Source of the DNA: a virus
Length of the DNA stretch: 24,266 bases
IMG/VR virus record: IMGVR_UViG_3300033148_000061
Location: 1 to 24,266 of that record
Strand: one strand, 5' to 3'
A program made the position numbers and the translations under genes. Within the stretch, counting starts at the first letter, position 1, and each line of letters begins with the position of its first letter. Below are positions 6,456 to 24,266 of the stretch, in pieces. The notes beneath the pieces were generated by a model. The model had not been told where the DNA came from and searched no databases. It saw only the letters and a list, made by a program, of their open reading frames with translations.

Positions 6456-8987
6456 TTACAGACGACCGACTGCTACCTCAAGAATAGACAATTCATTATT
6501 AGTTTTGTCTTCGATAGCCTTACCTAAAGTCATGCCAGGATGCATTATTGTAGCAACATGATACCAAGCAGTTGCACCACCTTGACCATCACTTACCATA
6601 ACATCACCTTTCTGACATGAGCCTGTTACTTTACATGGTACTCTACCTTGTAATGCGACAGCAACTGGAATGCCTGGACACTCTGAATTCATTACATATG
6701 CTGGATTAGTTGATACTATACCTGCTACTCGTCTACTACCTTTTTCATCAGAAACATGAACTTCTTTACTACCACCAAAACATACAACAGTACCTGGTTC
6801 ATATACTTCTTCACCGTTATAATACTCAGCCAAGTCAGCATATGTTGCTTCTAATTTAGATCCTGCAGTCAATGACCAGTTACCTGTTATTGAACCTGCT
6901 GTAGTGTTTGCACCTGATGTAAGTGCTGTTGCTGTAATCGTTGTTGTGTCTACTGAACTTGCACTTATGCCAAATCCACTTATGGAGCCGGTTCCGGCAA
7001 TATTTGCAATACCAGTAAGATTAACACTTCCATTACCTGCAATGTTACCTCCAGATGGCATTGAAAGACCACCAGTTCCTGTAACAACTTCCGTACCTTC
7101 TATTGTTGGAGCAAATACTTTTCCTGTTGCATTAACATTTCCTGCACTAACATTTGCAGAAACAGTTAATGATGATAGTGTACCAACAGATGTAATGTTG
7201 GCTTGTGCGGCGCCTGAAACTGTACCGGCTACTGATGCTAATGCTACAGTACCTGATACATTTGCGCCAGCAACTGCATTAGCAGTCGCGGCAAAGTTAA
7301 CTTGACCTGCAACGTTTGCCCCTTGAACATTAGAAACATTGCCTGCATCTCCTTGAAGTATACCAACAACGTTACCGATAAATTGATCTGCGGCTACTCT
7401 GTTAGTAAATGTTGTGTGAGTTGCATTTGATGTAATTTCTTGGAAGCCTAATGTGATAGACGATCCTGATAGATATAAATCTTTAAATCTATTTGTGTTG
7501 TTTCCTAAGTCATAAGAAACGTTTGCATCTGGAGTAATGTCTCCTGATACTTCTAAACTTGTAAGTGTACCAACACTAGTGACATTTGGTTGTGCGGCTG
7601 TTGTTAATGGACCCGTAAGAGTCGATCCTGACACATCATAAGTTGCTTCAACATTGCCTGATACGAATTTTGCATTCGCAGTATCAAATGTATAACTACC
7701 ACTGACGTTGAGTGGTTTATTACCTGTTGCAGAAGTAGATACTAATGCTGGGAAATAATTTCCTGTAGTAAGATTACCTACTACACTGTTGTCTGCTACG
7801 TTAGCATAATCAACATTTAAATTTGCTACACGTGTTGTAGAGTCTACGACAATAGGTGTCGTACCCGTTGCTACGTTTGAAAATAGTCTGGATGATGTGA
7901 CTGATCCAGTTGCATTTAAATTTCCTACATTTGCATTACCATTAACAGTTAAAGTTTTACCTGCACTAAAGTCCCAAGTAAAATCTCCATCACCATCAAT
8001 AACACCTGAGTTATTATATTGTACACTTGTGTTACTACCTTGGGCCGCTGATCCACCTGTTCCGCCACCTACTGATGCTACTGCTCTACCACCTACACCA
8101 TATACATATGATGCTGAAAAGGTTGCAGTTGTTAATGCTTTGATTGGTCCTGCTACGCCGTTTGCATATACAGAATCTGAAACTGTAATCGTTGTACCGC
8201 CTGGCTTACTGTTAACGTAATATGTATTTGCTATATTTAATTCACTACCGTCTACATTTCCTGTAAATCTGACAGGAATATTTAATGCAAATACAGAAGA
8301 ATCACCAACAGTGATTTGGTTAGTTGCTATAGTTGATGAGTCTGCGTTAGTGTAAGAGTAAGCATTAAATCCTGTCCCGTTAACTGGTGTTGTTAATGAA
8401 GTATCAGAGTATAATGAAAATGTATTTGCTGTTAAAACATTAGCATAATATGTACCACCATTCAAATCAGTCATGCCAACTGCGCCAGTGATTGTAACTT
8501 CTTGTCCTGATGTTAAAAAGTTTTCTGCTGTTGATGTGATTTCTACAGGGTTTGCTTGAGTTGCATTTTCGATGTATGCTGTAATTGTTCCTTTAGGTGT
8601 CCAAGATAAATTACCTAAACCATCTGTTTCTATTGTATAACCAATTGAACCACCGTCTATTTGAACATTGCTAATCTCACCTAAGTCAACTAATCCTCCG
8701 GCGTCTCCACCTCTGTTGACCCAGTTAGTACCGTCAAATGCTAAAACTTGTCCGTTTGCGACTGTACTATTTGATATGTTTAAGTTGCCGACTGATCCGT
8801 CGATTTGACTGAATGTAATATCAGAGTATGAAGTTAAAACTTCTATATTTTCTAATCCACTAGTTGTTTTACCAATGAAGACTCTTTTTGCATCACTGGC
8901 AAAACCGATTTCTGCTTCGTCTAATTGTGGTAAATCAACTAGGTTACCAGCCCTTTGTTGAATTTTAGAGATTTGTATAATGCTCAT
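6456..8987 (-). CDS. Tail fibre / long structural fibre protein with peptidase_G2-like C-terminus
   Basis: 843 aa. The N-terminus (ISKIQQRAGNLVDLPQLDEA, then EIGFASDAKRVFIG) matches the short baseplate-attachment domain seen at the start of many marine myovirus fibres. The middle is low-charge and T/S/G/N-rich, with beta repeats such as AAQPNVTSVGTLTSLEVSG and AAQANITSVGTLSSLTVSA. Residues about 135-285 hold modules shared with the neighbouring structural protein. The last 140 or so residues (ATYADLAEYY, AGIVSTNPAYVMN, VALQGRVPCKVTG, KGDVMVSDG) match the conserved C-terminal domain of marine phage fibres related to peptidase_G2. In that family the domain is an intramolecular chaperone that can cleave itself. 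It probably binds the host surface. It has its own late-type promoter and Shine-Dalgarno (AAAGGAAAA). No S74 chaperone motif is seen. Confidence 0.8.
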   Translation of the reverse strand: MSIIQISKIQQRAGNLVDLPQLDEAEIGFASDAKRVFIGKTTSGLENIEVLTSYSDITFSQIDGSVGNLNISNSTVANGQVLAFDGTNWVNRGGDAGGLVDLGEISNVQIDGGSIGYTIETDGLGNLSWTPKGTITAYIENATQANPVEITSTAENFLTSGQEVTITGAVGMTDLNGGTYYANVLTANTFSLYSDTSLTTPVNGTGFNAYSYTNADSSTIATNQITVGDSSVFALNIPVRFTGNVDGSELNIANTYYVNSKPGGTTITVSDSVYANGVAGPIKALTTATFSASYVYGVGGRAVASVGGGTGGSAAQGSNTSVQYNNSGVIDGDGDFTWDFSAGKTLTVNGNANVGNLNATGSVTSSRLFSNVATGTTPIVVDSTTRVANLNVDYANVADNSVVGNLTTGNYFPALVSTSATGNKPLNVSGSYTFDTANAKFVSGNVEATYDVSGSTLTGPLTTAAQPNVTSVGTLTSLEVSGDITPDANVSYDLGNNTNRFKDLYLSGSSITLGFQEITSNATHTTFTNRVAADQFIGNVVGILQGDAGNVSNVQGANVAGQVNFAATANAVAGANVSGTVALASVAGTVSGAAQANITSVGTLSSLTVSANVSAGNVNATGKVFAPTIEGTEVVTGTGGLSMPSGGNIAGNGSVNLTGIANIAGTGSISGFGISASSVDTTTITATALTSGANTTAGSITGNWSLTAGSKLEATYADLAEYYNGEEVYEPGTVVCFGGSKEVHVSDEKGSRRVAGIVSTNPAYVMNSECPGIPVAVALQGRVPCKVTGSCQKGDVMVSDGQGGATAWYHVATIMHPGMTLGKAIEDKTNNELSILEVAVGRL

Positions 8988-9015
8988 AAGTCTAATCTTT
9001 TCCTTTGATTATACT

Positions 9016-9023
9016 TATTTATC
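9016..9023 (-). promoter_or_regulatory. Late-type promoter box GATAAATA for the fibre gene
   Basis: With T4 spacing +1 is at 9010, giving a 23-nt leader with Shine-Dalgarno AAAGGAAAA. This contrasts with the leaderless-type boxes elsewhere in the window. Confidence 0.6.
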
Positions 9024-9041
9024 ATTGATTTTAAATCAATG
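9023..9041 (-). other. Palindrome abutting the fibre promoter
   Basis: CATTGAT (9023-9029) and ATCAATG (9035-9041) form a 7-bp inverted repeat around a 5-nt centre, with further A/T pairing inside. It touches the GATAAATA box and lies just after the stop of the nuclease gene (9052). It could be a weak terminator hairpin, although no T-run follows, or an operator. Confidence 0.35.
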
Positions 9042-9051
9042 TGGCATTTTA

Positions 9052-9741
9052 TCAGATGTACTTAGTATAGTATTCTTCTAACTTCTTTAACCATTGTTGA
9101 TGATACTTGTCGAACTCATTGCCTTCTACAATAAACTCTTGGTATTCATAGTCTTTACTACACATAAACACGACACCTTTCTTAATATTTGTGCCGTATA
9201 GTTCATTATGTGCATCTGCGTAAGCCGCTAATTGAATAAAGTAATCGTCAATCCACTCACGTTTTTTAGGTCTGTTAGTTTGTTTGTGATCCATGATTGC
9301 TTCATCACCTTTATGCAACCCAACTAAATCAGTTGTACCTGCATAAATTTGAGGGAAGTATAATGTTACTTCAGTTCCCCAAAATTCTTCACAGTTGACT
9401 AGACCTTTATCAACAATTTCTTGTGCCATAATGTGACTTTGTTTACTATACGGATTAGATCCGTATTGCCCCATGTCTCCAGTATCACTTAACACATAGT
9501 TTTCTAACCATTTATGCATACGTGTTCCGCGACCTGCGGCTTCTGTAGTGATCTCTTGTGCTTTAGCATAGCCAACTCTTTTGCGCCATTCTTGCAATCC
9601 TTTTTTCTTTTCTTCTGATTGCGTTGCAGATAAGATAGTCGTTACACTAGGAAGTTTACCGCCGTCTGGTGTAAGATATTTGCGTGAACCATCAAAGTTT
9701 TTCTTTTTTAATTCTTGGTATGGATATTTTTGTGTGATCAT
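9052..9741 (-). CDS. PD-(D/E)XK superfamily exonuclease (RecB/Cas4-like)
   Basis: 229 aa. Motifs in order: GTRMHKWLE (about 72-80, helix with the RecB-type His), GTEVTLY (E124), GTTDLVG (D138), IMDHKQT (D151, K153) and QLAAYADA (Q170). These are the acidic residues, the lysine and the Q-x3-Y helix of the RecB-like PD-(D/E)XK nucleases, which cut DNA ends with Mg2+. Such genes occur in many marine T4-like phages and are thought to act in recombination or degradation of DNA; the exact role is unknown. The start overlaps the stop of the SGNH-like gene by 1 nt (TAATG), with Shine-Dalgarno GAGG, so the two are probably translationally coupled. Confidence 0.85.
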   Translation of the reverse strand: MITQKYPYQELKKKNFDGSRKYLTPDGGKLPSVTTILSATQSEEKKKGLQEWRKRVGYAKAQEITTEAAGRGTRMHKWLENYVLSDTGDMGQYGSNPYSKQSHIMAQEIVDKGLVNCEEFWGTEVTLYFPQIYAGTTDLVGLHKGDEAIMDHKQTNRPKKREWIDDYFIQLAAYADAHNELYGTNIKKGVVFMCSKDYEYQEFIVEGNEFDKYHQQWLKKLEEYYTKYI

Positions 9742-10613
9742 TAGGGCCTCATTGATTCTTCGTTTTCTGGTTTACCGTCCCAGTTTTTAGTTAAGTAGTC
9801 TAATCCTAGTTCGTGGAAGTAATAAATGTTCCTACAAAATTCTCTTGGATAATAATTAATAGGATCATTGTGACTTTTATCTAGTTCCTCTTGATTGTAT
9901 GGAGGAATGATTAATATGTCATGTAATGTTGCACAATCTTTTTCAACAACTTCATATGTATAACGTTTATTAAATTCTTTCCAAATATATTCGGCTAAGT
10001 GTTTATGCCCTGCTTCAGTTTCATGTTGACAGATTGTTTTTTCAAATTCTTGTGTAACCATATTAAAATTTTCTAACTTACCATTGTGTAGATAAAGTTC
10101 ATTTTTAAGTATTGTTTCATTATCTTCTATCCATTGCTCTGTTTTACCATTACAACAAGGCATGTAATCAGTCATTAGATGTGGAACATGATGTGTATCT
10201 AACAAATGATTAATACTAGCCCAAATATGTAATTTTTCTTGTTCTGCTAAACAATAATAAAAGTCATCCGATTCTCTGATTATTTCTTTTTCTACTTGAG
10301 CCATATGACCTTCTCCACCTACGATAACATATCGATTTTCAGAAGATATATAGGCTTCTCTGCGTGATGCTTGGGAGTATGCATGTATATAAAAAGGATT
10401 ATTGTCGTTAAACAAATCTTTATAAAAGTAACGATTAGTTCTGCGAAAAATTGCTTGATTGCCTTGTCCAGGAACTGCAAGATTTACTAAAGGGACACCC
10501 AATCGTTTCGCAATGATCGATGCCCACCCATCTTTAATTGGGTCTGAGATACCATGTCCATATGTGTAACTACAGCCGTTAACAACTAAGTGTGATATTT
10601 GTATGTGCTTCAA
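9741..10613 (-). CDS. SGNH/GDSL-hydrolase-like protein (TTG start)
   Basis: 290 aa from a TTG start. Block I is VVNGCSYTYGHG, with Ser15 where the nucleophile of GDSL/SGNH hydrolases lies. Block II-like NLAVPGQGNQ supplies the Gly and Asn. A distal AGHKHLAEYIW segment has a His suited to block V, although the usual DxxH Asp is not clear. The family cleaves esters, including acyl groups on glycans or lipids; the substrate here is unknown and activity is not certain. An open frame runs up to an ATG at 10640, but that would overlap the IscA-like gene by 31 nt without reason. The TTG at 10613 overlaps the IscA-like stop as TTGA (4 nt) and has GGAGAG upstream. It resembles conserved phage proteins that begin with the GCS(Y/F)T motif near the N-terminus. 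Confidence 0.7.
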   Translation of the reverse strand: MKHIQISHLVVNGCSYTYGHGISDPIKDGWASIIAKRLGVPLVNLAVPGQGNQAIFRRTNRYFYKDLFNDNNPFYIHAYSQASRREAYISSENRYVIVGGEGHMAQVEKEIIRESDDFYYCLAEQEKLHIWASINHLLDTHHVPHLMTDYMPCCNGKTEQWIEDNETILKNELYLHNGKLENFNMVTQEFEKTICQHETEAGHKHLAEYIWKEFNKRYTYEVVEKDCATLHDILIIPPYNQEELDKSHNDPINYYPREFCRNIYYFHELGLDYLTKNWDGKPENEESMRP

Positions 10614-10927
10614 ATTGTAAAACTCTCTCCGCAACCACAACGTGCTTTCTCTAAAGGATTGATGAATTCAAAACCTTCATTCAAACCTTGCTTTTGATAG
10701 TCTACTGTGATTCCTTCAAGTATGCTGTTAGCCTTAGGATCTATTAATATAGAAAATCCGTCGTACTCATTAATGATGTCTTCGTCATTAATAGCATCTG
10801 CGAATTCAAGTTTATAAGCATATCCACTACAGCCAGTAGTTTCAATACCTATACGAATTCCGATACCTTTACCACGGTTTTCTAAATGGTCTTTAATTTT
10901 TGTTTTTGCTATATCTGTGACTTCCAT
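10610..10927 (-). CDS. A-type iron-sulfur carrier (IscA/SufA/ErpA family)
   Basis: 105 aa, the usual family length. Cys33 in TTGCSGYAYKLEF and the C-terminal pair Cys97/Cys99 in RCGCGESF are the three conserved ligands for a [2Fe-2S] or [4Fe-4S] cluster or iron. The family passes Fe-S clusters from scaffold proteins to apo-enzymes in the cytoplasm. Marine phages carry such genes as auxiliary metabolic genes, presumably to keep host or phage Fe-S enzymes active during infection. The stop overlaps the TTG of the SGNH-like gene. Two promoter-like elements precede it: a sigma70-like one (10954-10982) and a late-type box TTAAATA ending 5 nt before the ATG. No Shine-Dalgarno lies at the normal distance. 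Confidence 0.9.
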   Translation of the reverse strand: MEVTDIAKTKIKDHLENRGKGIGIRIGIETTGCSGYAYKLEFADAINDEDIINEYDGFSILIDPKANSILEGITVDYQKQGLNEGFEFINPLEKARCGCGESFTI

Positions 10928-10932
10928 ACTTG

Positions 10933-10939
10933 TATTTAA
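10933..10939 (-). promoter_or_regulatory. Late-type box TTAAATA, 5 nt before the IscA-like ATG
   Basis: One base from CTAAATA, on the minus strand, then CAAGT, then ATG at 10927. The spacing puts +1 on the A of the ATG. Confidence 0.45.
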
Positions 10940-10953
10940 TACCTTAATAAGTT

Positions 10954-10982
10954 ATTATAAAGTAATTTATATTGCGAGTAAA
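10954..10982 (-). promoter_or_regulatory. Sigma70-like promoter upstream of the IscA-like gene
   Basis: Perfect -10 TATAAT (10954-10959), 17-bp spacer and -35 TTTACT (10977-10982, 4 of 6 matches) on the minus strand. Predicted +1 is near 10947. Together with the late-type box this would allow expression both early and late. Confidence 0.45.
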
Positions 10983-10993
10983 GTGTATTGGGT

Positions 10994-11365
10994 TTATATT
11001 TTGAAGGCGCCGCGATCTTTTTTCATTGCTGATTTAGCCATTTTATCAACAGTTTTTTCACCATCAGATTGCTTGTCTTGTCCCGGTTGGATACTAACGG
11101 GTTCATGACCTTTAAAGATTACTTTATCACCTTGAATATTTGCGATGACACTTTTAAGAAGTGGCTTTTCTAACATTGTGTACAAGTCTTGTACGTCAAG
11201 TATAATATCATTGTCTTGGAATGTGTCGAGTAATTGATCTACTGTATAGTTATCAGCATCGATGGATCCGTCTTCAACATGTTGTTTTAGTTGATTGGAA
11301 ACAGCCACGATGCTGGCTGCCATCGCATTACTGTCCTGAGCATCGACAAACTCGTAAAGCCTCAT
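10994..11365 (-). CDS. Conserved hypothetical phage protein
   Basis: 123 aa, ATG with Shine-Dalgarno AAAGG. Not recognised beyond a general likeness to small acidic proteins of marine T4-like phages. It is mostly helical with an acidic middle (DNDIILDVQDL). A short predicted strand (GDKVIFKGHEP) comes next, then a Lys/Asp-rich C-terminus ending KKDRGAFKI. No membrane segment, cysteine or catalytic motif is seen. It starts 5 nt after the stop of the 245-aa gene, so they are probably one transcript from the late box at 13115. The gap to the IscA-like gene holds that gene's own promoters. Confidence 0.65.
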   Translation of the reverse strand: MRLYEFVDAQDSNAMAASIVAVSNQLKQHVEDGSIDADNYTVDQLLDTFQDNDIILDVQDLYTMLEKPLLKSVIANIQGDKVIFKGHEPVSIQPGQDKQSDGEKTVDKMAKSAMKKDRGAFKI

Positions 11366-11370
11366 GTGCT

Positions 11371-12108
11371 TTACCTTTTTGCTCTACCGACTGGTCCTGT
11401 TGATACGTCTACGTTTACGTCTTCGACATCGCCGACAACTTCTGGTGCATTGACATCTACTACGTCAGTTCCCATATCGCCTGTTACGTCAAGTGCTGGT
11501 GCTGAAACATCCATGCTGTCAACTCCAACTTCTCCGTCACCCATGCTTGAGTCTACGTCACCGTCGAATGCATCTACAACTTGTCCACCAGTAATACCTG
11601 CTAATGCTTGATCAAGTTGACCTTTAACAGATACTAAACACTGATTTAATTCTGCTAATGCTTGACCAGTTGTTTGATCAAATGCTTGTGCTTCGTTAAC
11701 GCCAATTTCTGTTTGAACAGAGTCAACTAATGCAGGCATTTCTTTGACTAACATATCTGAAACTTCTTCTAACATTTTCTGTACAGAGTCAACCATATCT
11801 TGTGCGGCAAGAATAACTTGTGATCTGTTAACTTCTTCGTTTTCAGTAATCACTTTAGTTCTTGGTGCTTCAGGAGCAACTTTATAATGCTCTCTTAGGG
11901 CTTGTTCCATAAATACTAATTTCATATATGATGGATACTCTGCTCCGAAGTTAGAAGATTGTTTTGCTTCTGCAATCAAACCTTTAACTTTGTTATGCAT
12001 AGTTTGAGTTTGTATTTTGTTTAAGCCTTTGATGTTTAGATCAACTTCAAAATTTTCTTTTAAAGCAGTGACCGCTACTTCTTGCTTGTTTAAATCATTA
12101 AGTTTCAT
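11371..12108 (-). CDS. Conserved phage protein with acidic V/D-rich tail (probable virion or assembly protein)
   Basis: 245 aa. Residues 1-180 or so are helical and coiled-coil-like (ILAAQDMVDSVQKMLEEVSD, then MPALVDSVQTEIG, then ALAELNQCLVSVKGQLDQAL). The last 60 or so residues are low-complexity alternating Val/Asp/Gly (VDSMDVSAPALDVTGDMG), strongly acidic, closing with basic GRAKR. I recall similar AAQDMVDxVQKMLE proteins in marine T4-like phages of unassigned, possibly structural, function. Shine-Dalgarno TAGGAA precedes the ATG. It lies 9 nt after the 186-aa gene. The helix-plus-acidic-tail layout would suit a scaffold or internal head protein, but this is inference. Confidence 0.7.
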   Translation of the reverse strand: MKLNDLNKQEVAVTALKENFEVDLNIKGLNKIQTQTMHNKVKGLIAEAKQSSNFGAEYPSYMKLVFMEQALREHYKVAPEAPRTKVITENEEVNRSQVILAAQDMVDSVQKMLEEVSDMLVKEMPALVDSVQTEIGVNEAQAFDQTTGQALAELNQCLVSVKGQLDQALAGITGGQVVDAFDGDVDSSMGDGEVGVDSMDVSAPALDVTGDMGTDVVDVNAPEVVGDVEDVNVDVSTGPVGRAKR

Positions 12109-12117
12109 ATTAAATTC

Positions 12118-12678
12118 CTAGTAATCTGTCGTAGATATATTGTATTTATCTTGTTCCGCAGAATTTCTGGACTTTTTATACCGATTCTTTTTATGTAATT
12201 CAAAGATTCTACGTTGTTGTTCTTTAGATGTATTTATTAGAGTTTCTAAACTTTGTACAATTTGTTTTTTTCTACTTAAATCATGCTGTAATTTAGTCAG
12301 TTGAATTAGTCTGTAATCCAAATCTTGCTTAGGATTTTTATATCCACGTGTATGAACAGCAATATCTAAATTAATAGCCGCTAACTTACCATCTAGTTGA
12401 TATACTTCTGTTGCCCTTTCACTTTGACGATTATGACAGAAGACACAATAAGCCATAGCATGTTTGGCATTGATAAATTCATAAGATTCGTCCCAGTTCT
12501 TTTCAGTAACATCATATAATCCTGTTGATTTTGAGTTACGTATTTTATATTTACCGAAGGCTTTAATACCATAGTTATCATTGCTGATGTAAAGATTTTT
12601 TAATTCTTTAATCATTTCTGCTCTAAACATCTGCTTGATTTTGTTACGAGCATCCGCTACATTCGTCTTCTTTTTCAT
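12118..12678 (-). CDS. Hypothetical basic helical protein
   Basis: 186 aa, not recognised. The N-terminus is Lys-rich (MKKKTNVADARNKIKQM). The middle has KYKIRNSKSTGLYDV followed by a helix with CVFCHN (CxxC, no partner pair visible). The second half is a long charged helix (LIQLTKLQHDLSRKKQIVQ), probably a coiled coil, ending in a very basic stretch (HKKNRYKKSRN). The ATG overlaps the stop of the upstream gene by 4 nt (ATGA) and has Shine-Dalgarno GGAG, so translation is probably coupled. Nucleic-acid binding or head-internal packing is possible from the charge, but nothing specific supports it. Confidence 0.65.
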   Translation of the reverse strand: MKKKTNVADARNKIKQMFRAEMIKELKNLYISNDNYGIKAFGKYKIRNSKSTGLYDVTEKNWDESYEFINAKHAMAYCVFCHNRQSERATEVYQLDGKLAAINLDIAVHTRGYKNPKQDLDYRLIQLTKLQHDLSRKKQIVQSLETLINTSKEQQRRIFELHKKNRYKKSRNSAEQDKYNISTTDY

Positions 12679-13109
12679 ACATTCTCCATAAAGTATATAT
12701 TATTTAATTCAGGTGTAGTGTCTAAAAAGTTCGGTAAGTCTACACTTTCTGTTCCACATCTAATCATAGGTATCTCATGGCAATCTTTTACAAGATAACC
12801 TAAAGCATCTATGTTGTCATCAAAAACTGAATTGTTCTGTACTTTAAAATCAAACTTCCAATAATGAAAGTCATCTGAATCTATTAAGAATCCAAACGGG
12901 GAGTCTTCTGTGTCTGCCTCTATACGATGAGGGTAATGTAATATGTCTGGGTTGCCTCGCAAACTTATGCATTGTAATATAGTATCAAAGTTTGCTTGTG
13001 AATTTCTTTGAACTTGCCATAACTGGTGATTGTCTCCAACAGGCTTTGACCTGTTAAGAACATTAGTATGAGTAATGTCAAACAATGTGAAGCAAGTTAT
13101 AGTTTTCAT
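12675..13109 (-). CDS. Conserved hypothetical protein of marine T4-like phages
   Basis: 144 aa, starting MKTITCFTLFDITHTNVLNR, an N-terminus I recall as conserved in marine T4-like phages. Further on it has RNSQANFDTILQ, FGFLIDSDDFHYWKFDF and a C-terminal acidic region. It looks like a compact alpha/beta protein without a known catalytic motif. Function unknown. A CTAAATA box ends 5 nt before the ATG and no Shine-Dalgarno is present. It is the first gene of a four-gene run down to 10994, and its stop overlaps the next start (ATGA). Confidence 0.7.
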   Translation of the reverse strand: MKTITCFTLFDITHTNVLNRSKPVGDNHQLWQVQRNSQANFDTILQCISLRGNPDILHYPHRIEADTEDSPFGFLIDSDDFHYWKFDFKVQNNSVFDDNIDALGYLVKDCHEIPMIRCGTESVDLPNFLDTTPELNNIYFMENV

Positions 13110-13114
13110 GTTAG

Positions 13115-13121
13115 TATTTAG
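13115..13121 (-). promoter_or_regulatory. Late-type promoter box CTAAATA
   Basis: On the minus strand: CTAAATA, CTAAC, then ATG at 13109. Predicted +1 is the A of the ATG. It directly follows the terminator of the gene above, so it is a clean transcription boundary. Confidence 0.6.
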
Positions 13122-13129
13122 TAGCCAAA

Positions 13130-13157
13130 AAAAAGCCTCTAATAAAAGAGGCTTTTT
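13130..13157 (-). terminator. Rho-independent terminator after the 123-aa structural gene
   Basis: An 11-bp stem AAAAAGCCTCT/AGAGGCTTTTT (13130-13140, 13147-13157) with a 6-nt loop and a run of eight T on the minus strand, 18 nt past the stop at 13176. The plus strand also has T at its end, so it may work both ways. Confidence 0.88.
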
Positions 13158-13175
13158 AATTCGTTAACTAAAAAC

Positions 13176-13547
13176 TTAGTTAGTGAAAGTTGCTGATGCT
13201 ACAACAGTTGATGTTCCACCACAAGCCGCATCGATTGCAGATGCTAAAGTAGTTGCGTCCCAAGCGCCAGTAGGATATACTGCGATTGAAAGGTCATCAG
13301 TTGCGTCATTAGTAAACTCGTAGATGTAAACAATTGCTTTTTGCTGAATTGTTAACATTGCGATGTTTGCTTTAGTTGTGTTAGCCGCGATATCTGCTAA
13401 CTCAATGTTAAAGAAGTCTAACTTAGGTCCTTGAGGCTGAACTGTAGCCGCACTCTCGACCGCGTTAACTCCTGGGTTGCTGTATCCAGTTGCATCTAAA
13501 CGCAATACTGGGTAAAAGTCACCATTTGCTCTTGTAAATTGTGCCAT
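13176..13547 (-). CDS. Small virion structural protein (probable)
   Basis: 123 aa, rich in A, T, V and D and poor in Lys, with predicted beta strands (AIVYIYEFTN, LSIAVYPTGAW, TVVASATFTN). The N-terminus is MAQFTRANGDFYPVLRLDAT. The composition is like small head-decoration or tail proteins of marine phages; no named family is recognised. It stands as its own transcription unit: late-type box at 13623-13629, a 70-nt leader with a 21-codon ORF and a perfect hairpin, Shine-Dalgarno AAAAAAGGAA before the ATG, and a strong terminator after the stop. Such a private promoter, leader and terminator suggest high, separately controlled late output. Confidence 0.7.
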   Translation of the reverse strand: MAQFTRANGDFYPVLRLDATGYSNPGVNAVESAATVQPQGPKLDFFNIELADIAANTTKANIAMLTIQQKAIVYIYEFTNDATDDLSIAVYPTGAWDATTLASAIDAACGGTSTVVASATFTN

Positions 13548-13551
13548 TTTT

Positions 13552-13617
13552 CTATTCCTTTTTTGTAAGACTCGTTCCGAGTCTGTAAGTTTTGTTGTCC
13601 CTCACCATGAGGTTCAT
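13552..13617 (-). CDS. Putative 21-codon leader ORF
   Basis: ATG at 13617 lies 5 nt after a CTAAATA box, the same spacing as four annotated genes nearby. It encodes MNLMVRDNKTYRLGTSLTKK plus Glu and ends TAG 4 nt before the ATG of the 123-aa structural gene, whose Shine-Dalgarno lies in its last codons. The hairpin at 13568-13584 is inside it. It may be a translated leader coupling to the structural gene, or just 5' untranslated sequence. Confidence 0.35.
   Translation of the reverse strand: MNLMVRDNKTYRLGTSLTKKE
13568..13584 (-). promoter_or_regulatory. Leader hairpin AGACTCG/CGAGTCT
   Basis: A perfect 7-bp stem with a 3-nt loop in the leader of the 123-aa structural gene, about 15-20 nt before its Shine-Dalgarno. 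No T-run follows, so it is not a terminator; it may stabilise the mRNA or affect translation. Confidence 0.5.
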
Positions 13618-13622
13618 ACTAA

Positions 13623-13629
13623 TATTTAG
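13623..13629 (-). promoter_or_regulatory. Late-type promoter box CTAAATA
   Basis: Minus strand, followed by TTAGT and the ATG of the leader ORF at 13617. It drives the 123-aa structural gene. It lies in the short gap after the 13658 gene. Confidence 0.55.
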
Positions 13630-13657
13630 TCCTTTATCAAAAAAATACGGTGATATA

Positions 13658-14806
13658 TTACTTTGCGGCGAGATTTTGAGCAGAAAAGCCCATTCTGTTG
13701 ACAAACTTGAGTCCGTTAGCAACGAAACCTTCATGTGTTTCACTACCATCGTCTAAATATCCTTTCACAGGACTAGACTCTGCGGCTTTGTCTAATTGAT
13801 CTACAATGTTTTGTTTTAAGTTATATAATGCAATCCAAATCTTAAATGCACCCATCACACCTTCTTTGTGTGAATTAAAATGATTTGTAATCTTTTGTCT
13901 CATAGAGTCAGTCATTGGACGTTGCTCAATGAATTGAAGGAAATCATTATATAAGTTAGATAAGTCTTTGGCGACAATCTTTTTATTAATGAATACAGTA
14001 AACAAAGAGTTGAATGCATTACGTGCCTGTGGTGCAGAGTTCATTAATATTCTTACATTGTCTCCGTGCTGTGCAATTTCTGCTTCTGCTTGTGACTTTA
14101 GTTTACTAGGCATTTTTATCTTTGGTGTGATCGGCATCTTACTAGGAACAATTGCAACATCACTATTGTTATGTAAGTTCCCTATCGTGCCGTCAAGTGA
14201 TGAGGACTCATCTGTAGTTTCTGCATTTGCTGGAATAAATGTGTGTACACCTACTCCTGCTGTTTTACCTTTCAACATGTGTCCAACTTCACTATCTGCT
14301 TTAACTTTGTATGCAATACCATTTGGATTCATTTTAAATGAATAATAACCATCTTGGTCTTCTAATGGTTTAGCAAAGAGTAAGTCTCCCCAATAGTAAC
14401 CTAATGATCCTCGGTCTGCTTTTTCTAGTCCAGGCCAAATACTATCGATAAGAGCATACAAATCTCCTCGATCAACACCTCTGTTTTTATCATACTGTCT
14501 AAATTCTTGTGGGGAAAAGACTTGTCTACCTGTACCGTCTTTCTTATTGAACATATGTTTGTCCATGATAGAAAATCTACCTTTTTGATCACGTCCAAAG
14601 ATTAGAGCAGGATAACCGTCCCACTTAATTGTGATTGTACCAGGTGATGCAATAGTTTTTTCCATTGCACTTATTGCTTGTTTTGCACCCTCAACGTCGC
14701 CTAAGAACACTAAATCTTCTGGATGATCTAAGTGTCCTTTTGCTTCGACTAAATTGATTTTTTCTAATGTACGTAGAGTATTAGATAATGATTCACTGAG
14801 GTTCAT
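13658..14806 (-). CDS. Conserved T4-like phage protein with ligase-like KWDG motif (DUF6267-type)
   Basis: 382 aa. Residues 58-72 read ITIKWDGYPALIFGRD, in which K61-x-D-G64 looks like motif I (KxDG) of the covalent nucleotidyltransferases: DNA and RNA ligases and capping enzymes. Later come YYWGDLLFAKP (137-147, at the place of motif III) and GIAYKVKAD (163-171, a possible motif IV or V). I recall this as a widespread marine T4-like phage family labelled as a domain of unknown function. If the fold is right, Lys61 could be adenylylated; this is unproven. The C-terminal half (about 205-382) is helical. The start region is duplicated: the true ATG at 14806 has no Shine-Dalgarno and overlaps the stop of an upstream minigene as ATGA. 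Confidence 0.7.
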   Translation of the reverse strand: MNLSESLSNTLRTLEKINLVEAKGHLDHPEDLVFLGDVEGAKQAISAMEKTIASPGTITIKWDGYPALIFGRDQKGRFSIMDKHMFNKKDGTGRQVFSPQEFRQYDKNRGVDRGDLYALIDSIWPGLEKADRGSLGYYWGDLLFAKPLEDQDGYYSFKMNPNGIAYKVKADSEVGHMLKGKTAGVGVHTFIPANAETTDESSSLDGTIGNLHNNSDVAIVPSKMPITPKIKMPSKLKSQAEAEIAQHGDNVRILMNSAPQARNAFNSLFTVFINKKIVAKDLSNLYNDFLQFIEQRPMTDSMRQKITNHFNSHKEGVMGAFKIWIALYNLKQNIVDQLDKAAESSPVKGYLDDGSETHEGFVANGLKFVNRMGFSAQNLAAK

Positions 14807-14847
14807 AATGTACGTAGAGTATTAGATAATGATTCACTGAGGTTCAT
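14766..14847. repeat. Exact 41-bp tandem duplication over a gene start
   Basis: 14766-14806 and 14807-14847 are identical. Each ends (on the minus strand, begins) with the ATG and first 13 codons of the 13658-14806 gene. Because 41 is not a multiple of 3, the upstream copy is out of frame with the gene. Confidence 0.97.
14803..14847 (-). CDS. 14-codon minigene made by the duplication
   Basis: ATG at 14847, 2 nt after the TAA of the 524-aa gene, with Shine-Dalgarno GAGG 5 nt upstream. It encodes MNLSESLSNTLRTL, the same first 14 residues as the following gene, and stops at a TGA that overlaps that gene's ATG (ATGA). It has the only good ribosome binding site at this junction, so it may be translated and lead ribosomes to restart on the gene. 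Confidence 0.5.
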   Translation of the reverse strand: MNLSESLSNTLRTL

Positions 14848-14849
14848 TT

Positions 14850-16424
14850 TTACCTCGTTTTCAATGATGCTATTTTTTCTGCTCTTAATGATGAGTATGT
14901 TAGAGATTCTGCAACTTGATCTTTTTGACTATAATCTGTACCACCTACGTCACCTTTTGCTAACTGGTCCAGTGCATATTGATTGAGTTTTTGTGCCATG
15001 TCTCTAGTTGCTATACGACCTGTTTCTTTACTTGTCCATCTAGCGCCATGCCATGTATATGTTTGACCACCTGACTGTAGTTGAGCGCCTCGGGGATAAT
15101 TTGACATACTAAAACTTTGCTCGTCATTTTTGGCTTCCGGTTCCCGATATTCACCGCCCTTAACTCTACTTCCACCTGACTTAGGCTCTGCTGGCTCAGA
15201 GTTCCGGTCGCCGCCACCGCCACCTTGAACTTTACCTGTTGCTGTATCAATAGTAGGATTAGATGATTGATTATCTCCTCCTAATGGTAATTCTTGTTGA
15301 TCCACTGTTGGTCGACCAACAGACATGTCTTCTTGGTATTCAGGATTCTCTTTAACATATTTGTTAAGAGCATTGACATAAACTGTCTGTGCAGGTTGTT
15401 GAGTTTCTACATCAATCCATTGTCTGTTAGGGCCATTGACCATAAATACAAATTGTCTACCACCGACTTCTAATTTGACACCCTCTTTTACTCTAAAATC
15501 AACACTGTCATCATGACCATTTGTTTTTTTCTGAGGAGCAGTATCACCGGCAATCGCATCCTCTAAATCTTTTTGTTGCTTAGGATTTGCTCCTGCATCT
15601 TTTGCGCCAGCAGTCATAACACCAGCAGATTTTGATGCACCCCATGCGGCTTGTGCTAATTTGTTTATCAATTGTCTATTGATGTCTGGCTTCATAGGGT
15701 TTTTTGATTTTTGGTACTGATCTTGTATCTGTTTAATGATAGAATTAGATACCCCTTTAGTTTTAGAAAGATCGACACCAGCCATCCATTGTCCATACCA
15801 ATCAGTTAAGAATGTATACAAGTCTCTCTGATCTGCAATTTGCTCATCGATAATACTTTCTAATATAGTATCCAGTTGAACGTATTGATAATCAAGGCTT
15901 TCCATAATGTTTTCATCTAATGCACCATTCCAACCTGGATATGCTCTTTTGATTTCCTGATCTGTCATTCCCTTAGGATTAGCGGGATAACCACCTTGCT
16001 TTAATTGCTTGATCGTATACTGTTGCCAAATTTTGTCGGTTGAACCAGTCAAGTTATTATATGCTGTAGGATTACCTTTAGATGGTTCATAGTAACCATA
16101 TTTTTCATGTCCCGTCATTTTAGGATTGAACATTCTTCTCATTTTTTCTTGGAATCCAGGAATTAAACGACCATCATCTGTTTTACCATCAACATCGATA
16201 TTAGAGTCTGGTCCGTCTGCACCACCTGCAGGCGCAATTAATCCAGATTGTAATCCTGCTTGAATTGAACTCAAACAATCACTTACAAAGTTGGTTGTAA
16301 AAATTTTGTGTGCTAGTTGGTCTCTGTATGTTAAGTCTCCACCAGAAATTGAAGGCATTTGATCGGCTTTTGGTTTGCGGTTGAATATACCTTCTTCTAT
16401 TTTAATGACATCATCAAATTTCAT
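14850..16424 (-). CDS. Conserved phage protein with two C-terminal repeat modules (probable virion protein)
   Basis: 524 aa, not matched to a T4 gene. The N-terminal two thirds are mixed, with many W/Y/Q (KIWQQYTIKQLKQGGYP, FLTDWYGQWMAGVDL). The C-terminal third has two related modules of about 40 residues. Residues 317-358 read KLEVGGRQFVFM.. with W336 and a closing VNALNKYV. Residues 448-488 read QLQSGGQTYTWHG.. with W463 and a closing AQKLNQYAL. A Gly/Ser/Pro/Glu-rich linker (about 380-435) separates them. This looks like a small duplicated beta-strand plus helix domain on a flexible tether. No enzyme motif is seen. Upstream is the 80-aa gene (8-nt gap). Downstream, 2 nt after the stop, is the duplicated start region. 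Confidence 0.65.
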   Translation of the reverse strand: MKFDDVIKIEEGIFNRKPKADQMPSISGGDLTYRDQLAHKIFTTNFVSDCLSSIQAGLQSGLIAPAGGADGPDSNIDVDGKTDDGRLIPGFQEKMRRMFNPKMTGHEKYGYYEPSKGNPTAYNNLTGSTDKIWQQYTIKQLKQGGYPANPKGMTDQEIKRAYPGWNGALDENIMESLDYQYVQLDTILESIIDEQIADQRDLYTFLTDWYGQWMAGVDLSKTKGVSNSIIKQIQDQYQKSKNPMKPDINRQLINKLAQAAWGASKSAGVMTAGAKDAGANPKQQKDLEDAIAGDTAPQKKTNGHDDSVDFRVKEGVKLEVGGRQFVFMVNGPNRQWIDVETQQPAQTVYVNALNKYVKENPEYQEDMSVGRPTVDQQELPLGGDNQSSNPTIDTATGKVQGGGGGDRNSEPAEPKSGGSRVKGGEYREPEAKNDEQSFSMSNYPRGAQLQSGGQTYTWHGARWTSKETGRIATRDMAQKLNQYALDQLAKGDVGGTDYSQKDQVAESLTYSSLRAEKIASLKTR

Positions 16425-16432
16425 TTGACTGC

Positions 16433-16675
16433 TTACCCTTGATATTTTTTAATCGTTTTTGAAAAACGTGTCTTGTCTCTTCCTCGGATAGCACTTAGCA
16501 GTTTCTTTTCTAATTGTTCAGCCTGAACGTCATCATAGTTGCGTTGAATAAATTCAATTAAATTTACAGCACTGGTAATGATATTGTTGCCGCGTGATTC
16601 AACAATATGTGGTATATCTCGGTTACTACCAAAATTTTCCAGTTCTTCTAAAAGGCTTTTTGTTTTCTTCTGCAT
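16433..16675 (-). CDS. Small conserved phage protein
   Basis: 80 aa: MQKKTKSLLEELENFGSNRD, then HIVESRGNNIITSAVNLIEF and a basic C-terminus (RGRDKTRFSKTIKKYQG). The pattern KKTKSLLEEL..VE.RG.NII.SA.NL is one I recall in small marine T4-like phage proteins of unknown function. It is helical and has no membrane segment. The start has Shine-Dalgarno AAGGAA, 9-10 nt before the ATG. A CTAAATA box upstream would start the mRNA right at that Shine-Dalgarno. Confidence 0.7.
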   Translation of the reverse strand: MQKKTKSLLEELENFGSNRDIPHIVESRGNNIITSAVNLIEFIQRNYDDVQAEQLEKKLLSAIRGRDKTRFSKTIKKYQG

Positions 16676-16695
16676 AAGTTTAATTTCCTTACTAC

Positions 16696-16702
16696 TATTT
16701 AG
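16696..16702 (-). promoter_or_regulatory. Late-type promoter box CTAAATA
   Basis: Minus strand. T4 spacing puts +1 at 16690, giving a 15-nt leader that starts with AAGGAA and precedes the ATG at 16675. It separates the replication genes from the virion/conserved block downstream. Confidence 0.55.
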
Positions 16703-16724
16703 TCAACCATGACCATTTTGGATA

Positions 16725-18140
16725 TTATTTGTCTTTCAAAGTATTAAGTAATGATTTTAATTTTGTACTTTGTACATCACCATTGACTCTTTTTTCTTCA
16801 GGCTCTACTTGATTTTCGACTATTTCATTAGTCTGCCCTACTTGTGATGTAGTTTTAAACTTATCCATAATTGCTTGTGCAGATGGTTGTGATGTATTAT
16901 GTGTTGGTGCGTTAGTTCCTGGGTCTGTAATACGCAATGTCTCAATATCAAATGCTAATTCGACTTTTTGTCCTACCCCTGAACTTGATCTTGTCTTCAT
17001 TAACTGAATTTGATACTGACCGCGTTCTCTCATGCTACGTGACGTAAAGATACCGAATACGTTGTCTGCTGTATTGATTTTTGATATACCACCTGAGATA
17101 TGACTGTGATCAAATTCAATTTCATCAACTGAACTTCTGTTTAACTGTGATGCAGTTACGAATACTAAATCAAACTCTTTTGCCAAGTTACGTAATTCTT
17201 CTGATACATACTTGTCTTTAACAAACAAGTCACTAGGACTTACTTTAGCACTTACTGGCATTAACAAATCCAAATAGTCAACACACATAAAGTCTAATTT
17301 CATGCCTGTTTGTATCTGTAATTCTTTAACATATGCTCTCAAATCATTTACTGTAGACTGAGCCGGCATATATTTAATTCTAAAGTTACCTGCGGCTTTT
17401 TGTTTCATCTTAACTTTCATTTCAACATTGTCTAAGTCTTTAAATACTTCCTTAGACTTGGTATCAGTCAACATAGAATCAATACGCATTGCTGATAGTT
17501 CTTCACTCAATTCTAGTGTGATGTACACCCCTGATAAGCCTTGCTCTACCCAATTGACTGATAGATTTTGCATAAACAATGACTTACCTGAACCCGAACC
17601 CCCAGCAAAGATTTGCAGTTCGCCCTTATTAAAACCCCCATAGAGTTTTTGATCTAAGCAGGGCCAACCACATGATACTTGACCATTACTAGATTTAAGA
17701 TGCATAAGACGAGCCCTAGGATCTTCAAAGTAATCGATACCTAAGTCTCTTTGTAATGATATTTGTACTGCATCTTTGATTAACTTTTCAACAGGATCAT
17801 AGTCACCTTTCTCTAGCAAGTCTGCTGATGACATGATTGCTCTTTCTAATTCTTGTCTACGAGTAAACGATTCAAATTCAGTCATAAACCAGTCGTAATG
17901 ACCTTCATCCATACCCTCGACCATGTCGATTGTTTCGCCTGTTGTTGCTTTGATTTGTGTAGAGTCCGGCAATATTTTATATTGCTCTGAATGTTCTCTC
18001 ATAAATTCTGCAACAGGTCTTAATCTTCTATCAAAGTTTTCTGCGTTAAAGATATTATTGACCCTAACAAACAACTCTGCGTTTGTTATCATCATTCTTA
18101 AGAACAATTCTTGTACTTCTACGTTAAATTCTTTTAGCAA
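16725..18140 (-). CDS. 41: Replicative DNA helicase, T4 gp41-like (DnaB family)
   Basis: 471 aa, close to T4 gp41 (475 aa). An N-terminal helical domain (1-150) is followed by a RecA-like core: Walker A GGSGSGKS (180-187), then ITLELSEE, Walker B FMCVDYLD (284-291), TASQLNRSS (329-337, the Gln-bearing motif H3) and a loop HISGGISK. The enzyme is the hexameric 5'-3' helicase that unwinds the replication fork and works with the primase. The C-terminal 60 or so residues are polar and probably flexible. The start is a TTG at 18140, inside the last codons of the primase gene (17-nt overlap), with Shine-Dalgarno GAGGA 6-7 nt upstream. Primase and helicase are thus one coupled unit. Confidence 0.93.
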   Translation of the reverse strand: MLKEFNVEVQELFLRMMITNAELFVRVNNIFNAENFDRRLRPVAEFMREHSEQYKILPDSTQIKATTGETIDMVEGMDEGHYDWFMTEFESFTRRQELERAIMSSADLLEKGDYDPVEKLIKDAVQISLQRDLGIDYFEDPRARLMHLKSSNGQVSCGWPCLDQKLYGGFNKGELQIFAGGSGSGKSLFMQNLSVNWVEQGLSGVYITLELSEELSAMRIDSMLTDTKSKEVFKDLDNVEMKVKMKQKAAGNFRIKYMPAQSTVNDLRAYVKELQIQTGMKLDFMCVDYLDLLMPVSAKVSPSDLFVKDKYVSEELRNLAKEFDLVFVTASQLNRSSVDEIEFDHSHISGGISKINTADNVFGIFTSRSMRERGQYQIQLMKTRSSSGVGQKVELAFDIETLRITDPGTNAPTHNTSQPSAQAIMDKFKTTSQVGQTNEIVENQVEPEEKRVNGDVQSTKLKSLLNTLKDK

Positions 18141-19098
18141 TTTTATTCCTCATAACTTCTACTTTTATTTTACTGTTTGTAGCAGAGTCTAATATACTTA
18201 GTAATGTATTCAGACGACCATATTTAATTACAGCATCATTTGCATCTTTAATATCTTCTGACCAGTTGGGTAAAGACACATCATAACCTAGTTCTAATGC
18301 TCTTTCACAGATGCCTAAACCTGTTTGATCCTGATCAGGAACAACAATAACACGTTTACCCAATTTGTTAATTACAGCAACTTGATTGTCATTAATTGTA
18401 TCATGTGTCAATGCTAATCCATTCATTGAAATCGCATCAAAGATACCTTCAAATACTAATACAACTTGCCATTCTTCTTTTTGTAAATCAACACCAAACA
18501 CATATCCTTGTTGCTGATCATTTATGAACTTAGGATTTCTGTCGTCCATAAATCTAATTGTACTACCAACAACTTTGTTTTCATATGTATAAGGGATAAT
18601 TATACCTTCCGCTTGTCTACCTTGTGCTGTAGGGTTAACCATAAAAGGATAATCATTATGTTGTAATCCTCTTTTGTTCAAGTAATCAATATACACTTGA
18701 TGATCTTTGTTTGCAGTATAAATCAACTCACCTTCTGGCATTGGTTGTTCTTTAAACTTCGGCAACTTAATTTGTTTCTTTTTACGTAAAATAGAATCTA
18801 ACAAATCTTTGTGCTGAATAGAATGCAAAGACCATTTATTAATATCTTGGTCTGGCATATGACACCACGTTAAGAAGTTACGTGTACGTTTGCTAATTGC
18901 TCTACCTAATTTAAAGCCACACTTAAAGCCACAATTAAAACAATGATATTGCCAATCATCTCCGTCTGCTTTAATACCCCCTCGCATTCTTTTATCAGGG
19001 TTATGCCCATTGTGCTGACAACAAGGCGCATTGAATGAAGTCCATCCACTCTGCGTCTGTTTCTTTTTGCCAGGGACAATCGTAAGTATATCAAACAT
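18124..19098 (-). CDS. 61: DNA primase, T4 gp61-like
   Basis: 324 aa, close to T4 gp61 (342 aa). The N-terminal zinc-binding region has APCCQHNGH (C26, C27) and YHCFNCGFK (C53, C56). The middle has RGLQHNDYPFMVNPTAQGR and a central EGIIIPYTY strand. The TOPRIM core shows LVFEGIFDAIS (catalytic Glu) and VIVVPDQDQTG (DxD). It makes the short RNA primers for lagging-strand synthesis as part of the gp41-gp61 primosome. The start MFDILTIVPGKKK fits marine homologues. There is no Shine-Dalgarno; a TATAAT box ends 7 nt before the ATG, so the transcript may be leaderless or nearly so. The C-terminus overlaps the helicase start. Confidence 0.92.
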   Translation of the reverse strand: MFDILTIVPGKKKQTQSGWTSFNAPCCQHNGHNPDKRMRGGIKADGDDWQYHCFNCGFKCGFKLGRAISKRTRNFLTWCHMPDQDINKWSLHSIQHKDLLDSILRKKKQIKLPKFKEQPMPEGELIYTANKDHQVYIDYLNKRGLQHNDYPFMVNPTAQGRQAEGIIIPYTYENKVVGSTIRFMDDRNPKFINDQQQGYVFGVDLQKEEWQVVLVFEGIFDAISMNGLALTHDTINDNQVAVINKLGKRVIVVPDQDQTGLGICERALELGYDVSLPNWSEDIKDANDAVIKYGRLNTLLSILDSATNSKIKVEVMRNKIAKRI

Positions 19099-19105
19099 AC
19101 TTGTT

Positions 19106-19134
19106 ATTATACGATAAATTTAGAGTGAAAACAA
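19106..19134 (-). promoter_or_regulatory. Sigma70-like promoter of the primase-helicase unit
   Basis: Perfect -10 TATAAT (19106-19111), 17-bp spacer and -35 TTGTTT (19129-19134) on the minus strand. Such a host-type promoter suits early expression of replication genes. The predicted +1 falls at or within a base or two of the ATG at 19098. Confidence 0.65.
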
Positions 19135-19148
19135 GAAGATTGGATAAC

Positions 19149-19868
19149 TTATCTTGCCAAAATAGTTACAATGTTACCCACATTTGCTTCAAATTTAACT
19201 TTGATAAACGGATGATAACCGCTGATAGTATACCCTATAGTTCCAGACTCACTAGCACCATTTGCGGCATTGCCATATCGATACGAATTGATATCATAGA
19301 ATCCAGAATCAACGAGAGTAGAACCTTGTAGTGTTACGTTACCAACATAATCTTTGTAGTCAATTGATGTAGTAAGTACAGGATTGTCTTGTGTATTAAT
19401 AATACTTGAGTAAAATGTTACTGCTTCAGAGTTTGCATTTGCATTTGCATTTGGTAAAGTTTCATCACTGGGTATTGTAACTAGTTGTGAAGGAACATAT
19501 GAAGGGAGAATAGAGTCAACTATGTTTAAGTCTCCTCTTGCTCCTGCTTTAGAATCTACAAATACAGGTAAATTAAGATTACCACTTGGCCATTCTAATG
19601 AATAATAACATTGTTGTGATTCAATGTTTTCAATTTCTGCGGCAGTCGTATTCAATTGAAAAATACCATTGACATCGAACACTGGAGTCAATGCTTTTCT
19701 TAAAAGGATTTCGGTACCATCTGAATTAATTGCTCTAAAAGATATTTGTTGATTTGCTGTAGCAATTGATGATAGATCCACAGGCTTCTGTTCCTGATTC
19801 AGAAACTGAAACTGTAATTGATTGTCAACGCCTTTATTTAACGTTAATGGTTTTGAATAAACTGGCAT
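19149..19868 (-). CDS. Virion structural protein (probable)
   Basis: 239 aa from the ATG at 19868, which has Shine-Dalgarno GAGGAAA. The start MPVYSKPLTLNKGVDNQLQF with FLNQEQKPVDLSSI resembles the first strands of BppU-like baseplate/tail N-terminal domains and of marine phage structural proteins. The rest is beta-rich and low in charge (ISFRAINSDGTEILLRKAL, GYTISGYHPFIKVKF). The frame is open upstream, and a GTG at 19949 with AGGAGA 9 nt before it could add 27 residues (VYTYTVRQVVVVL). I prefer the ATG because of its own strong Shine-Dalgarno and the familiar N-terminus. It has a late-type box at 19973 and a leader of about 99 nt. Confidence 0.65.
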   Translation of the reverse strand: MPVYSKPLTLNKGVDNQLQFQFLNQEQKPVDLSSIATANQQISFRAINSDGTEILLRKALTPVFDVNGIFQLNTTAAEIENIESQQCYYSLEWPSGNLNLPVFVDSKAGARGDLNIVDSILPSYVPSQLVTIPSDETLPNANANANSEAVTFYSSIINTQDNPVLTTSIDYKDYVGNVTLQGSTLVDSGFYDINSYRYGNAANGASESGTIGYTISGYHPFIKVKFEANVGNIVTILAR

Positions 19869-19972
19869 ATATTTCCTCGGGCTTGTGCCTGACAGAACCA
19901 CAACGACTTGTCTGACTGTATATGTATATACTGATGTAGTGTAAGACACAAATTTTAATCTCCTATAGAATA

Positions 19973-19980
19973 TATTTATC
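19973..19980 (-). promoter_or_regulatory. Late-type promoter box GATAAATA
   Basis: Minus strand, +1 predicted at 19967. The leader of about 99 nt contains GTATA/TATAC and TTGTG/CACAA small hairpins before the Shine-Dalgarno of the structural gene at 19868. Confidence 0.5.
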
Positions 19981-20024
19981 TCTACGTGTGTCAACCAAGA
20001 AATTTGACCATTTTTTTCAACGTA

Positions 20025-20031
20025 CTAAATA
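20025..20031 (+). promoter_or_regulatory. Late-type promoter box CTAAATA
   Basis: Plus strand, 10 nt before the ATG at 20042, so +1 would leave a leader of only 5 nt. No Shine-Dalgarno is present. Confidence 0.45.
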
Positions 20032-20041
20032 CTTTACAGAT

Positions 20042-23129: not shown

Positions 23130-23455
23130 TGCCACCTCGTTTCTAGCCACACACGTTCTTCATCACCTGCTAGATATATTCTACGTTGCTTATGATCTTC
23201 TTCATTAGACCAACACCAGTTTTCATTTAGTGTATCGTATGTACTGTCATTGTATTGTGCAAGGCTCATAAAGTTTGACAGTTCATGCACCCTGTCATAA
23301 TCTTTCATATCACAACTAGGTCCCCATGTATCCCAACACCAATCTCGTACTTTATTAAAATTTATGATAGAAGACAAATCAGAATGTGCTAGACTTAGGA
23401 GGAGTTTTAGTAACACAACACCACTTAAACATGTCATGTCCTTTCCATCGACCAT
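23126..23455 (-). CDS. Small Trp-rich conserved protein, start uncertain (possible 5' frameshift)
   Basis: The part from about FNKVRDWCWDTWGPSC to the end (NENWCWSNEEDHKQRRIYLA, then ERVWLETRWQ) looks like a real conserved small protein with many Trp. The first 30 or so codons (LLKLLLSLAHS) look like out-of-frame translation. In another frame an ATG at 23432 has a good Shine-Dalgarno (GGAAAGG, 7 nt) and encodes MFKWCCVTKTPPKSSTF before a stop. Either the gene starts further in or a frame change lies near 23385-23400. The stop overlaps the oxygenase start (ATGA). Function unknown. Confidence 0.5.
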   Translation of the reverse strand: MVDGKDMTCLSGVVLLKLLLSLAHSDLSSIINFNKVRDWCWDTWGPSCDMKDYDRVHELSNFMSLAQYNDSTYDTLNENWCWSNEEDHKQRRIYLAGDEERVWLETRWQ

Positions 23456-23491
23456 CCAATTGATAAAATTGTAAGTGTACTTCTACTGTGT

Positions 23492-24202: not shown

Positions 24203-24266
24203 TATCTGTAACGAGTTCACTAAGTAATTCTACCTCATCAAATTTTAGTTCTGGAAACTTTTCTGC
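24165..24266 (-). CDS. C-terminus of an unidentified protein (cut by window edge)
   Basis: The last 33 codons of a gene entering from the right edge, ending TAA at 24165. The residues are strongly acidic (FPELKFDEVELLSEL, then IEEYEKELGN). It overlaps the start region of the zinc-finger gene, which fits the overlapping style of this block. Too short to identify. Confidence 0.6.
   Translation of the reverse strand, partial: AEKFPELKFDEVELLSELVTDNEIEEYEKELGN

What the first reader, a model, noticed from the sequence alone, without database searches (positions are those of the whole stretch)
14766..14847. 41-bp tandem duplication creates a minigene that controls a downstream gene
Two exact copies lie over the start of the 382-aa gene. 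The upstream copy keeps the Shine-Dalgarno and ATG but, being shifted in frame, encodes only 14 residues. It ends with TGA inside an ATGA overlap with the second ATG, which has no Shine-Dalgarno of its own. The gene may now depend on ribosomes restarting after the minigene. Exact identity suggests a recent event, or an assembly error.
Basis: seen in the sequence. Interest (0 to 1): 0.65.

Follow-up and report, generated by a model that had tools for sequence, protein, structure and literature searches.

The report
Private 41-bp duplication at phage gene start
In one marine phage sequence record a 41-base stretch over the start of a gene is present twice, which makes a 14-codon mini-gene in front of it, but every comparable relative has one copy, so this looks like a recent one-off mutation (or an artefact of the record) rather than an evolved control switch.

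Summary
Two perfect 41-bp copies (14766-14806, 14807-14847) lie over the start of a DUF6267 gene on the minus strand. They create a 14-codon ORF that ends in an ATGA overlap with the second ATG, which has no Shine-Dalgarno (SD). All 78 relatives read at this place have one copy, and the junction is in no other searchable viral or prokaryotic contig. The nearest record (3300033144_000504) differs by 10 transitions in 15.4 kb plus three private frame-breaking indels: this +41, a 23-bp deletion in the window, and a 17-bp tandem duplication of its own. Other near-identical contig pairs show almost no indels, nearly all multiples of 3. So the duplication is private to one record: a recent mutation or an artefact; reads would decide. 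The conserved feature is older. In single-copy relatives the start lies 2 nt after the upstream gene's stop, and its SD (GAGGT) pairs with codons 2-4, an SD-sequestering hairpin of the kind known in T4. Codon choice supports the hairpin; covariation is not significant. If real, the duplication moves the long ORF to an SD-less restart and most likely lowers its output.

The parts
14807..14847 (-). copy 1 of the 41-bp duplication (upstream in gene direction; follows the SD and keeps hairpin and original ATG)
14766..14806 (-). copy 2 of the 41-bp duplication (start of the intact 382-aa ORF, no SD)
14803..14847 (-). 14-codon ORF MNLSESLSNTLRTL, stop TGA in ATGA overlap with next ATG
   Evidence: read directly
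14839..14856 (-). start-codon hairpin: GAGGT (SD, 14856-14852) pairs with ACCTC (codons 2-4, 14843-14839), ATG in the loop
   Evidence: fold; synonymous-codon randomisation across relatives; pairing kept in 94% of cells but covariation not significant
13658..14806 (-). 382-aa gene, DUF6267 (PF19782), protein 100% identical to nearest relative
14850..16424 (-). upstream 524-aa gene; its TAA (14852-14850) ends 2 nt before the first ATG
23392..23393 (-). site of a second private frame-breaking lesion in this record: 23-bp deletion inside a 130-aa gene that is intact in relatives
   Evidence: junction absent from other viral contigs

Best explanation
A recent, private, non-adaptive tandem duplication in one member of a marine phage population. 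Shown: the ancestral state has one copy, with the DUF6267 start 2 nt after the upstream gene's stop and its SD able to pair with codons 2-4. Inferred: in that state the start is opened mainly by ribosomes finishing the upstream gene. Inferred: in this record those ribosomes now start the 14-codon ORF, stop at TGA in the ATGA overlap, and only a fraction restart at the second ATG without an SD. DUF6267 is then made at reduced level, with no change to its sequence. The duplication is a tolerated or deleterious lesion, not a selected regulator.
For: One copy in every relative read. Duplication junction in no other viral or prokaryotic contig, while the single-copy form is in 18 contigs. Nearest contig differs by 10 SNPs, all transitions, of which 6 of the 8 in the listed minus-strand ORFs are synonymous, so bases outside the indels look like real, selected sequence. 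The duplication leaves both full-length ORFs readable; only about 11% of placements of a 41-bp duplication in the window do that. The 17-bp duplication of the sister record also covers a gene start. Restart without an SD is possible but usually weak: in E. coli SD removal cut reinitiation by 60-90% in three pairs, abolished it in one, and had no effect in the fifth, which was not coupled (PMC6728339).
Against: No reads, no second record. The same two records together carry three frame-breaking indels in about 15 kb, a pattern not seen in other near-identical contig pairs and one that fits a sequencing or assembly problem. Microhomology at the breakpoint is only 1 nt, unusual for replication slippage. 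The 23-bp deletion sits inside a conserved gene. The 17-bp duplication of the sister record alters the end of the gene before it.
Confidence: 0.52

Rival explanations
1. Artefact of the record: the 41-bp repeat was introduced by library chimerism or by a contig join or gap-closing step that failed to merge a 41-bp overlap; the phage has one copy.
For: Unique to this record. Excess of private frame-breaking indels in this record and its sister (+41, -23, +17) against nearly none in the other near-identical contig pairs. In 1.41 Mb of related loci all other exact tandem duplications over 10 bp are multiples of 3. Little breakpoint homology. 41 is a k-mer size used by some assemblers (own knowledge; assembler of this record unknown).
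Against: The 17-bp and 23-bp events do not fit one k-mer size. A de Bruijn assembly with k above 42 needs reads with the junction. Both tandem duplications fall on gene starts (about 4% and 2% of placements), which random artefacts would not prefer, though this is two events judged after the fact.
Confidence: 0.4
2. Selected regulatory minigene: the duplication was kept because translation of the 14-codon ORF and restart at ATGA sets the level of DUF6267 protein.
For: Geometry is the classical 4-nt overlap for termination-reinitiation; such overlaps couple translation in bacteria (PMC6728339; PMC10666635). The sister record shows an independent duplication that gives a 5-codon ORF with a TAATG overlap.
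Against: No relative has it. No divergence between copies, so no record of selection. The short frame is a mechanical result of duplicating a gene start that reads ATGA by a length of 3n+2. No SD for the restart.
Confidence: 0.06

Closest known systems
Translational coupling by termination-reinitiation at ATGA overlaps (PMC6728339, PMC10666635)
   Same: 4-nt stop/start overlap in the same operon, restart at the second ATG expected
   Different: Upstream frame is a 14-codon fragment made by duplication, the second ATG has no SD, and the arrangement is in one record only
SD-sequestering start hairpins of T4 genes such as soc, e, 25, 26 and homing endonucleases (PMC2988022)
   Same: Hairpin that sequesters the SD next to the ATG, in a phage gene
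   Different: No NATAAATA late-promoter-like site at this start in the window, so opening by upstream ribosomes is more likely than by a late transcript; the 3' arm is the coding sequence itself
Spontaneous short tandem duplication mutations
   Same: Exact, adjacent, private, frame-changing
   Different: Only 1 nt of flanking homology, and it falls on a gene start so both large ORFs stay open

Membership tests
Termination-reinitiation coupled gene pair | stop and start codons overlap by 1 or 4 nt | tested here: met
   ATGA 14806-14803
Termination-reinitiation coupled gene pair | downstream translation depends on upstream translation | not testable with these tools
   needs reporter fusions
Termination-reinitiation coupled gene pair | arrangement conserved in relatives | tested here: not met
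   0 of 78 relatives has the two-copy form; junction not found elsewhere
SD-sequestering start hairpin (T4 type) | SD paired in the predicted fold | tested here: met
   SD unpaired probability 0-0.06 in one-copy and two-copy RNA
SD-sequestering start hairpin (T4 type) | pairing kept by selection | tested here: inconclusive
   More stable than synonymous-codon randomisations, p about 0-0.08 in most SD-bearing relatives; not in L019, L028, L049, L056. Codon 3 is usually CTC, 8 of 318 Leu codons in the window genes counted. Pairing 94% in register, 59% or less when slid, but covariation within shuffles
SD-sequestering start hairpin (T4 type) | late promoter inside or just before the stem | tested here: not met
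   no NATAAATA site near this start; other promoter types not tested
DUF6267 (PF19782) | profile match above curated cut-off over full length | tested here: met
   126.8 bits against 27, residues 25-380

The most novel reading that the evidence does not exclude
This phage population repeatedly duplicates gene starts at abutting or overlapping junctions (41 bp here, 17 bp in the sister record), making short leader ORFs or fusions that retune coupled expression: a fast, reversible way of changing protein ratios.
Probability: 0.04. Interest if true: 0.65.

Novelty: new member of a known kind. Interest (0 to 1): 0.2.

Why it matters
If real it is a natural one-step change from an SD-led, hairpin-gated start to an SD-less restart, and so a test of how much output survives. 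More useful is the negative result: single-record features of this kind in metagenomic virus contigs need reads before a mechanism is proposed. The start hairpin shared by most SD-bearing relatives is a modest new example of hairpin-gated translation in marine phages.

Tried and rejected
Recurrence of the junction in viral and prokaryotic contig collections: none. An evolved leader peptide: rejected because relatives have one copy and the peptide is just the gene's own N-terminus. In-frame extension of the long ORF upstream of the second ATG: blocked by TAA 18 nt upstream. Long-range RNA structure of the duplicated region: not beyond shuffles (z -0.32). A T4-type late promoter at the start: none found. 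A solved relative of DUF6267: none by sequence; fold search gave only weak matches, some to RNA/DNA ligase adenylation domains (E 0.1-0.9, TM about 0.2 or less), so the KWDG ligase-like motif stays a lead. Papers on duplication artefacts in metagenome assembly: searches gave nothing usable.

Full report
What is there. On the minus strand, 14847-14807 and 14806-14766 are two identical 41-bp copies; no other exact tandem repeat with a period of 10-300 bp is in the window. The second copy starts the 382-aa ORF 13658-14806, a full-length member of Pfam DUF6267 (phrog_455, unknown function). The first copy keeps ATG 14847 and the SD GAGGT (14856-14852) before it, reads MNLSESLSNTLRTL and stops at TGA in ATGA (14806-14803). 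Before the second ATG there is no SD, and an in-frame TAA lies 18 nt upstream.

Where it comes from. The window is a whole 24,266-bp uncultivated virus record. Named relatives of DUF6267 are mostly Kyanoviridae cyanophages, with some Methylophilales phages, at about 26% identity or less. The nearby helicase is about 50% identical to those of large Pseudomonas phages, so the phage has no close named relative.

Relatives. In all 78 viral contigs whose start region was read there is one copy. The junction 23-mer is in no other viral contig and no prokaryotic genome contig, while the one-copy sequence is in 18 viral contigs. The tools warn that near-identical records may be left out, so 'private' means private among what could be searched. 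Metagenome contigs could not be scanned.

The nearest record. IMGVR_UViG_3300033144_000504 (L001) matches window 8878-24266 with 10 substitutions, all transitions; of the 8 that fall in the listed minus-strand ORFs, 6 are synonymous. Against this low divergence stand three indels: the 41-bp duplication (window only), a 23-bp deletion at 23393 (window only; breaks a 130-aa gene that is intact in L001 and L104), and a 17-bp tandem duplication (L001 only; covers the overlap of two genes, gives a 5-codon ORF with a TAATG overlap and fuses the two genes into a 425-aa ORF). None of the three junctions was found in another viral contig.

Control. Among the other contig pairs with under 2% substitutions, indels of 4 bp or more are rare and are 6, 9, 12 or 21 bp, with a single 8-bp exception (many pairs are the same contig or related ones, so they are not independent). 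In 1.41 Mb of related loci (redundant), every exact tandem duplication over 10 bp, apart from these 41- and 17-bp cases, is a multiple of 3. The two sister records are therefore unusual. That points to unselected lesions: either true young mutations not yet purged, or errors of the records. For real: substitutions look natural, and both duplications lie on gene starts, where such an event spares the downstream ORF (about 11% of placements for 41 bp; post hoc, and the 17-bp event does alter the gene before it). For artefact: three such events in two records, 1 nt or less of homology at the tandem breakpoints. I put real but unselected at 0.52, a selected minigene at 0.06, and artefact at 0.40.

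What the start does in relatives. The upstream 524-aa ORF ends with TAA 2 nt before the ATG, and the SD overlaps that stop. GAGGT can pair with ACCTC of codons 2-4 so that the ATG sits in the loop; the SD is unpaired with probability 0-0.06 while the ATG is open. Variants keep the pairing: GAGAT/ATCTC (L047), GAGAGATT/AATCTCTC (L034), AGAGAGGTT/AACCTTTCT (L031). The region is more stable than with synonymous codons drawn at the window's usage, p 0-0.08 in most SD-bearing relatives, and not in L019, L028, L049, L056 or in the relatives without this SD. Codon 3 is usually CTC, which is 8 of 318 Leu codons in the window genes counted. The formal covariation test is not significant (72-77 of 500 shuffles as high), although sliding the register drops pairing from 94% to 59% or less. 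The hairpin is likely but not proven.

Mechanism. SD-sequestering hairpins at start codons are known in T4 (PMC2988022), and short stop-start distances couple translation (PMC10666635). I infer that one-copy DUF6267 is opened by ribosomes leaving the upstream gene. With two copies, these ribosomes would translate 14 codons, terminate, and restart at an SD-less ATG. In E. coli, SD removal lowered reinitiation by 60-90% in three pairs, abolished it in one, and had no effect in the fifth, which was not coupled (PMC6728339). The expected effect is less DUF6267 protein. None of this was measured.

Verdict. Observation confirmed; regulatory minigene as an evolved feature not supported; ordinary private duplication or artefact. 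Interest low.

Noticed in passing
window 23393 and L101 5923-5956 (window 24189-24205): Two further private frame-breaking indels between the window and its 99.9% identical sister: a 23-bp deletion in the window inside a conserved 130-aa gene, and a 17-bp tandem duplication in the sister that fuses two overlapping genes into a 425-aa ORF.
   Followed up: yes
window 14839-14856 and the same place in relatives such as L031, L034, L047: Start-codon hairpin with SD paired to codons 2-4, stems up to 9-10 bp in L031 and L032; codon 3 is the rare Leu codon CTC in most.
   Followed up: partly
window 11354-11374 (start of ORF 10994-11365, minus strand): A second strong start hairpin: GTAAAGC before ATG pairs with GCTTTAC after it (-7.8 kcal/mol in 36 nt).
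   Followed up: no
window 13658-14806, residues 61-91 of the protein: DUF6267 has an invariant KWDGYPALIFG...MDKHMFNK.DG stretch like motif I of DNA/RNA ligases; the model (pLDDT 80) gave only weak PDB matches, some to ligase adenylation domains.
   Followed up: partly
window 13658-14806, residues 1-24 of the protein: The N-terminus MNLSESLSNTLRTLEKINLVE|AKG resembles a capsid-targeting peptide with a T4-type prohead protease site (hydrophobic-x-E); E21 and G24 are invariant in relatives. Recalled resemblance, not tested.
   Followed up: no
window 20308-21020: Seven of the ten substitutions against the sister record fall in 0.7 kb, all transitions, possibly a recombined stretch.
   Followed up: no
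window 10610-10927, 20409-20966, 22335-23150: Host-like genes: Fe-S cluster biosynthesis protein, peptide deformylase, PhyH dioxygenase.
   Followed up: no
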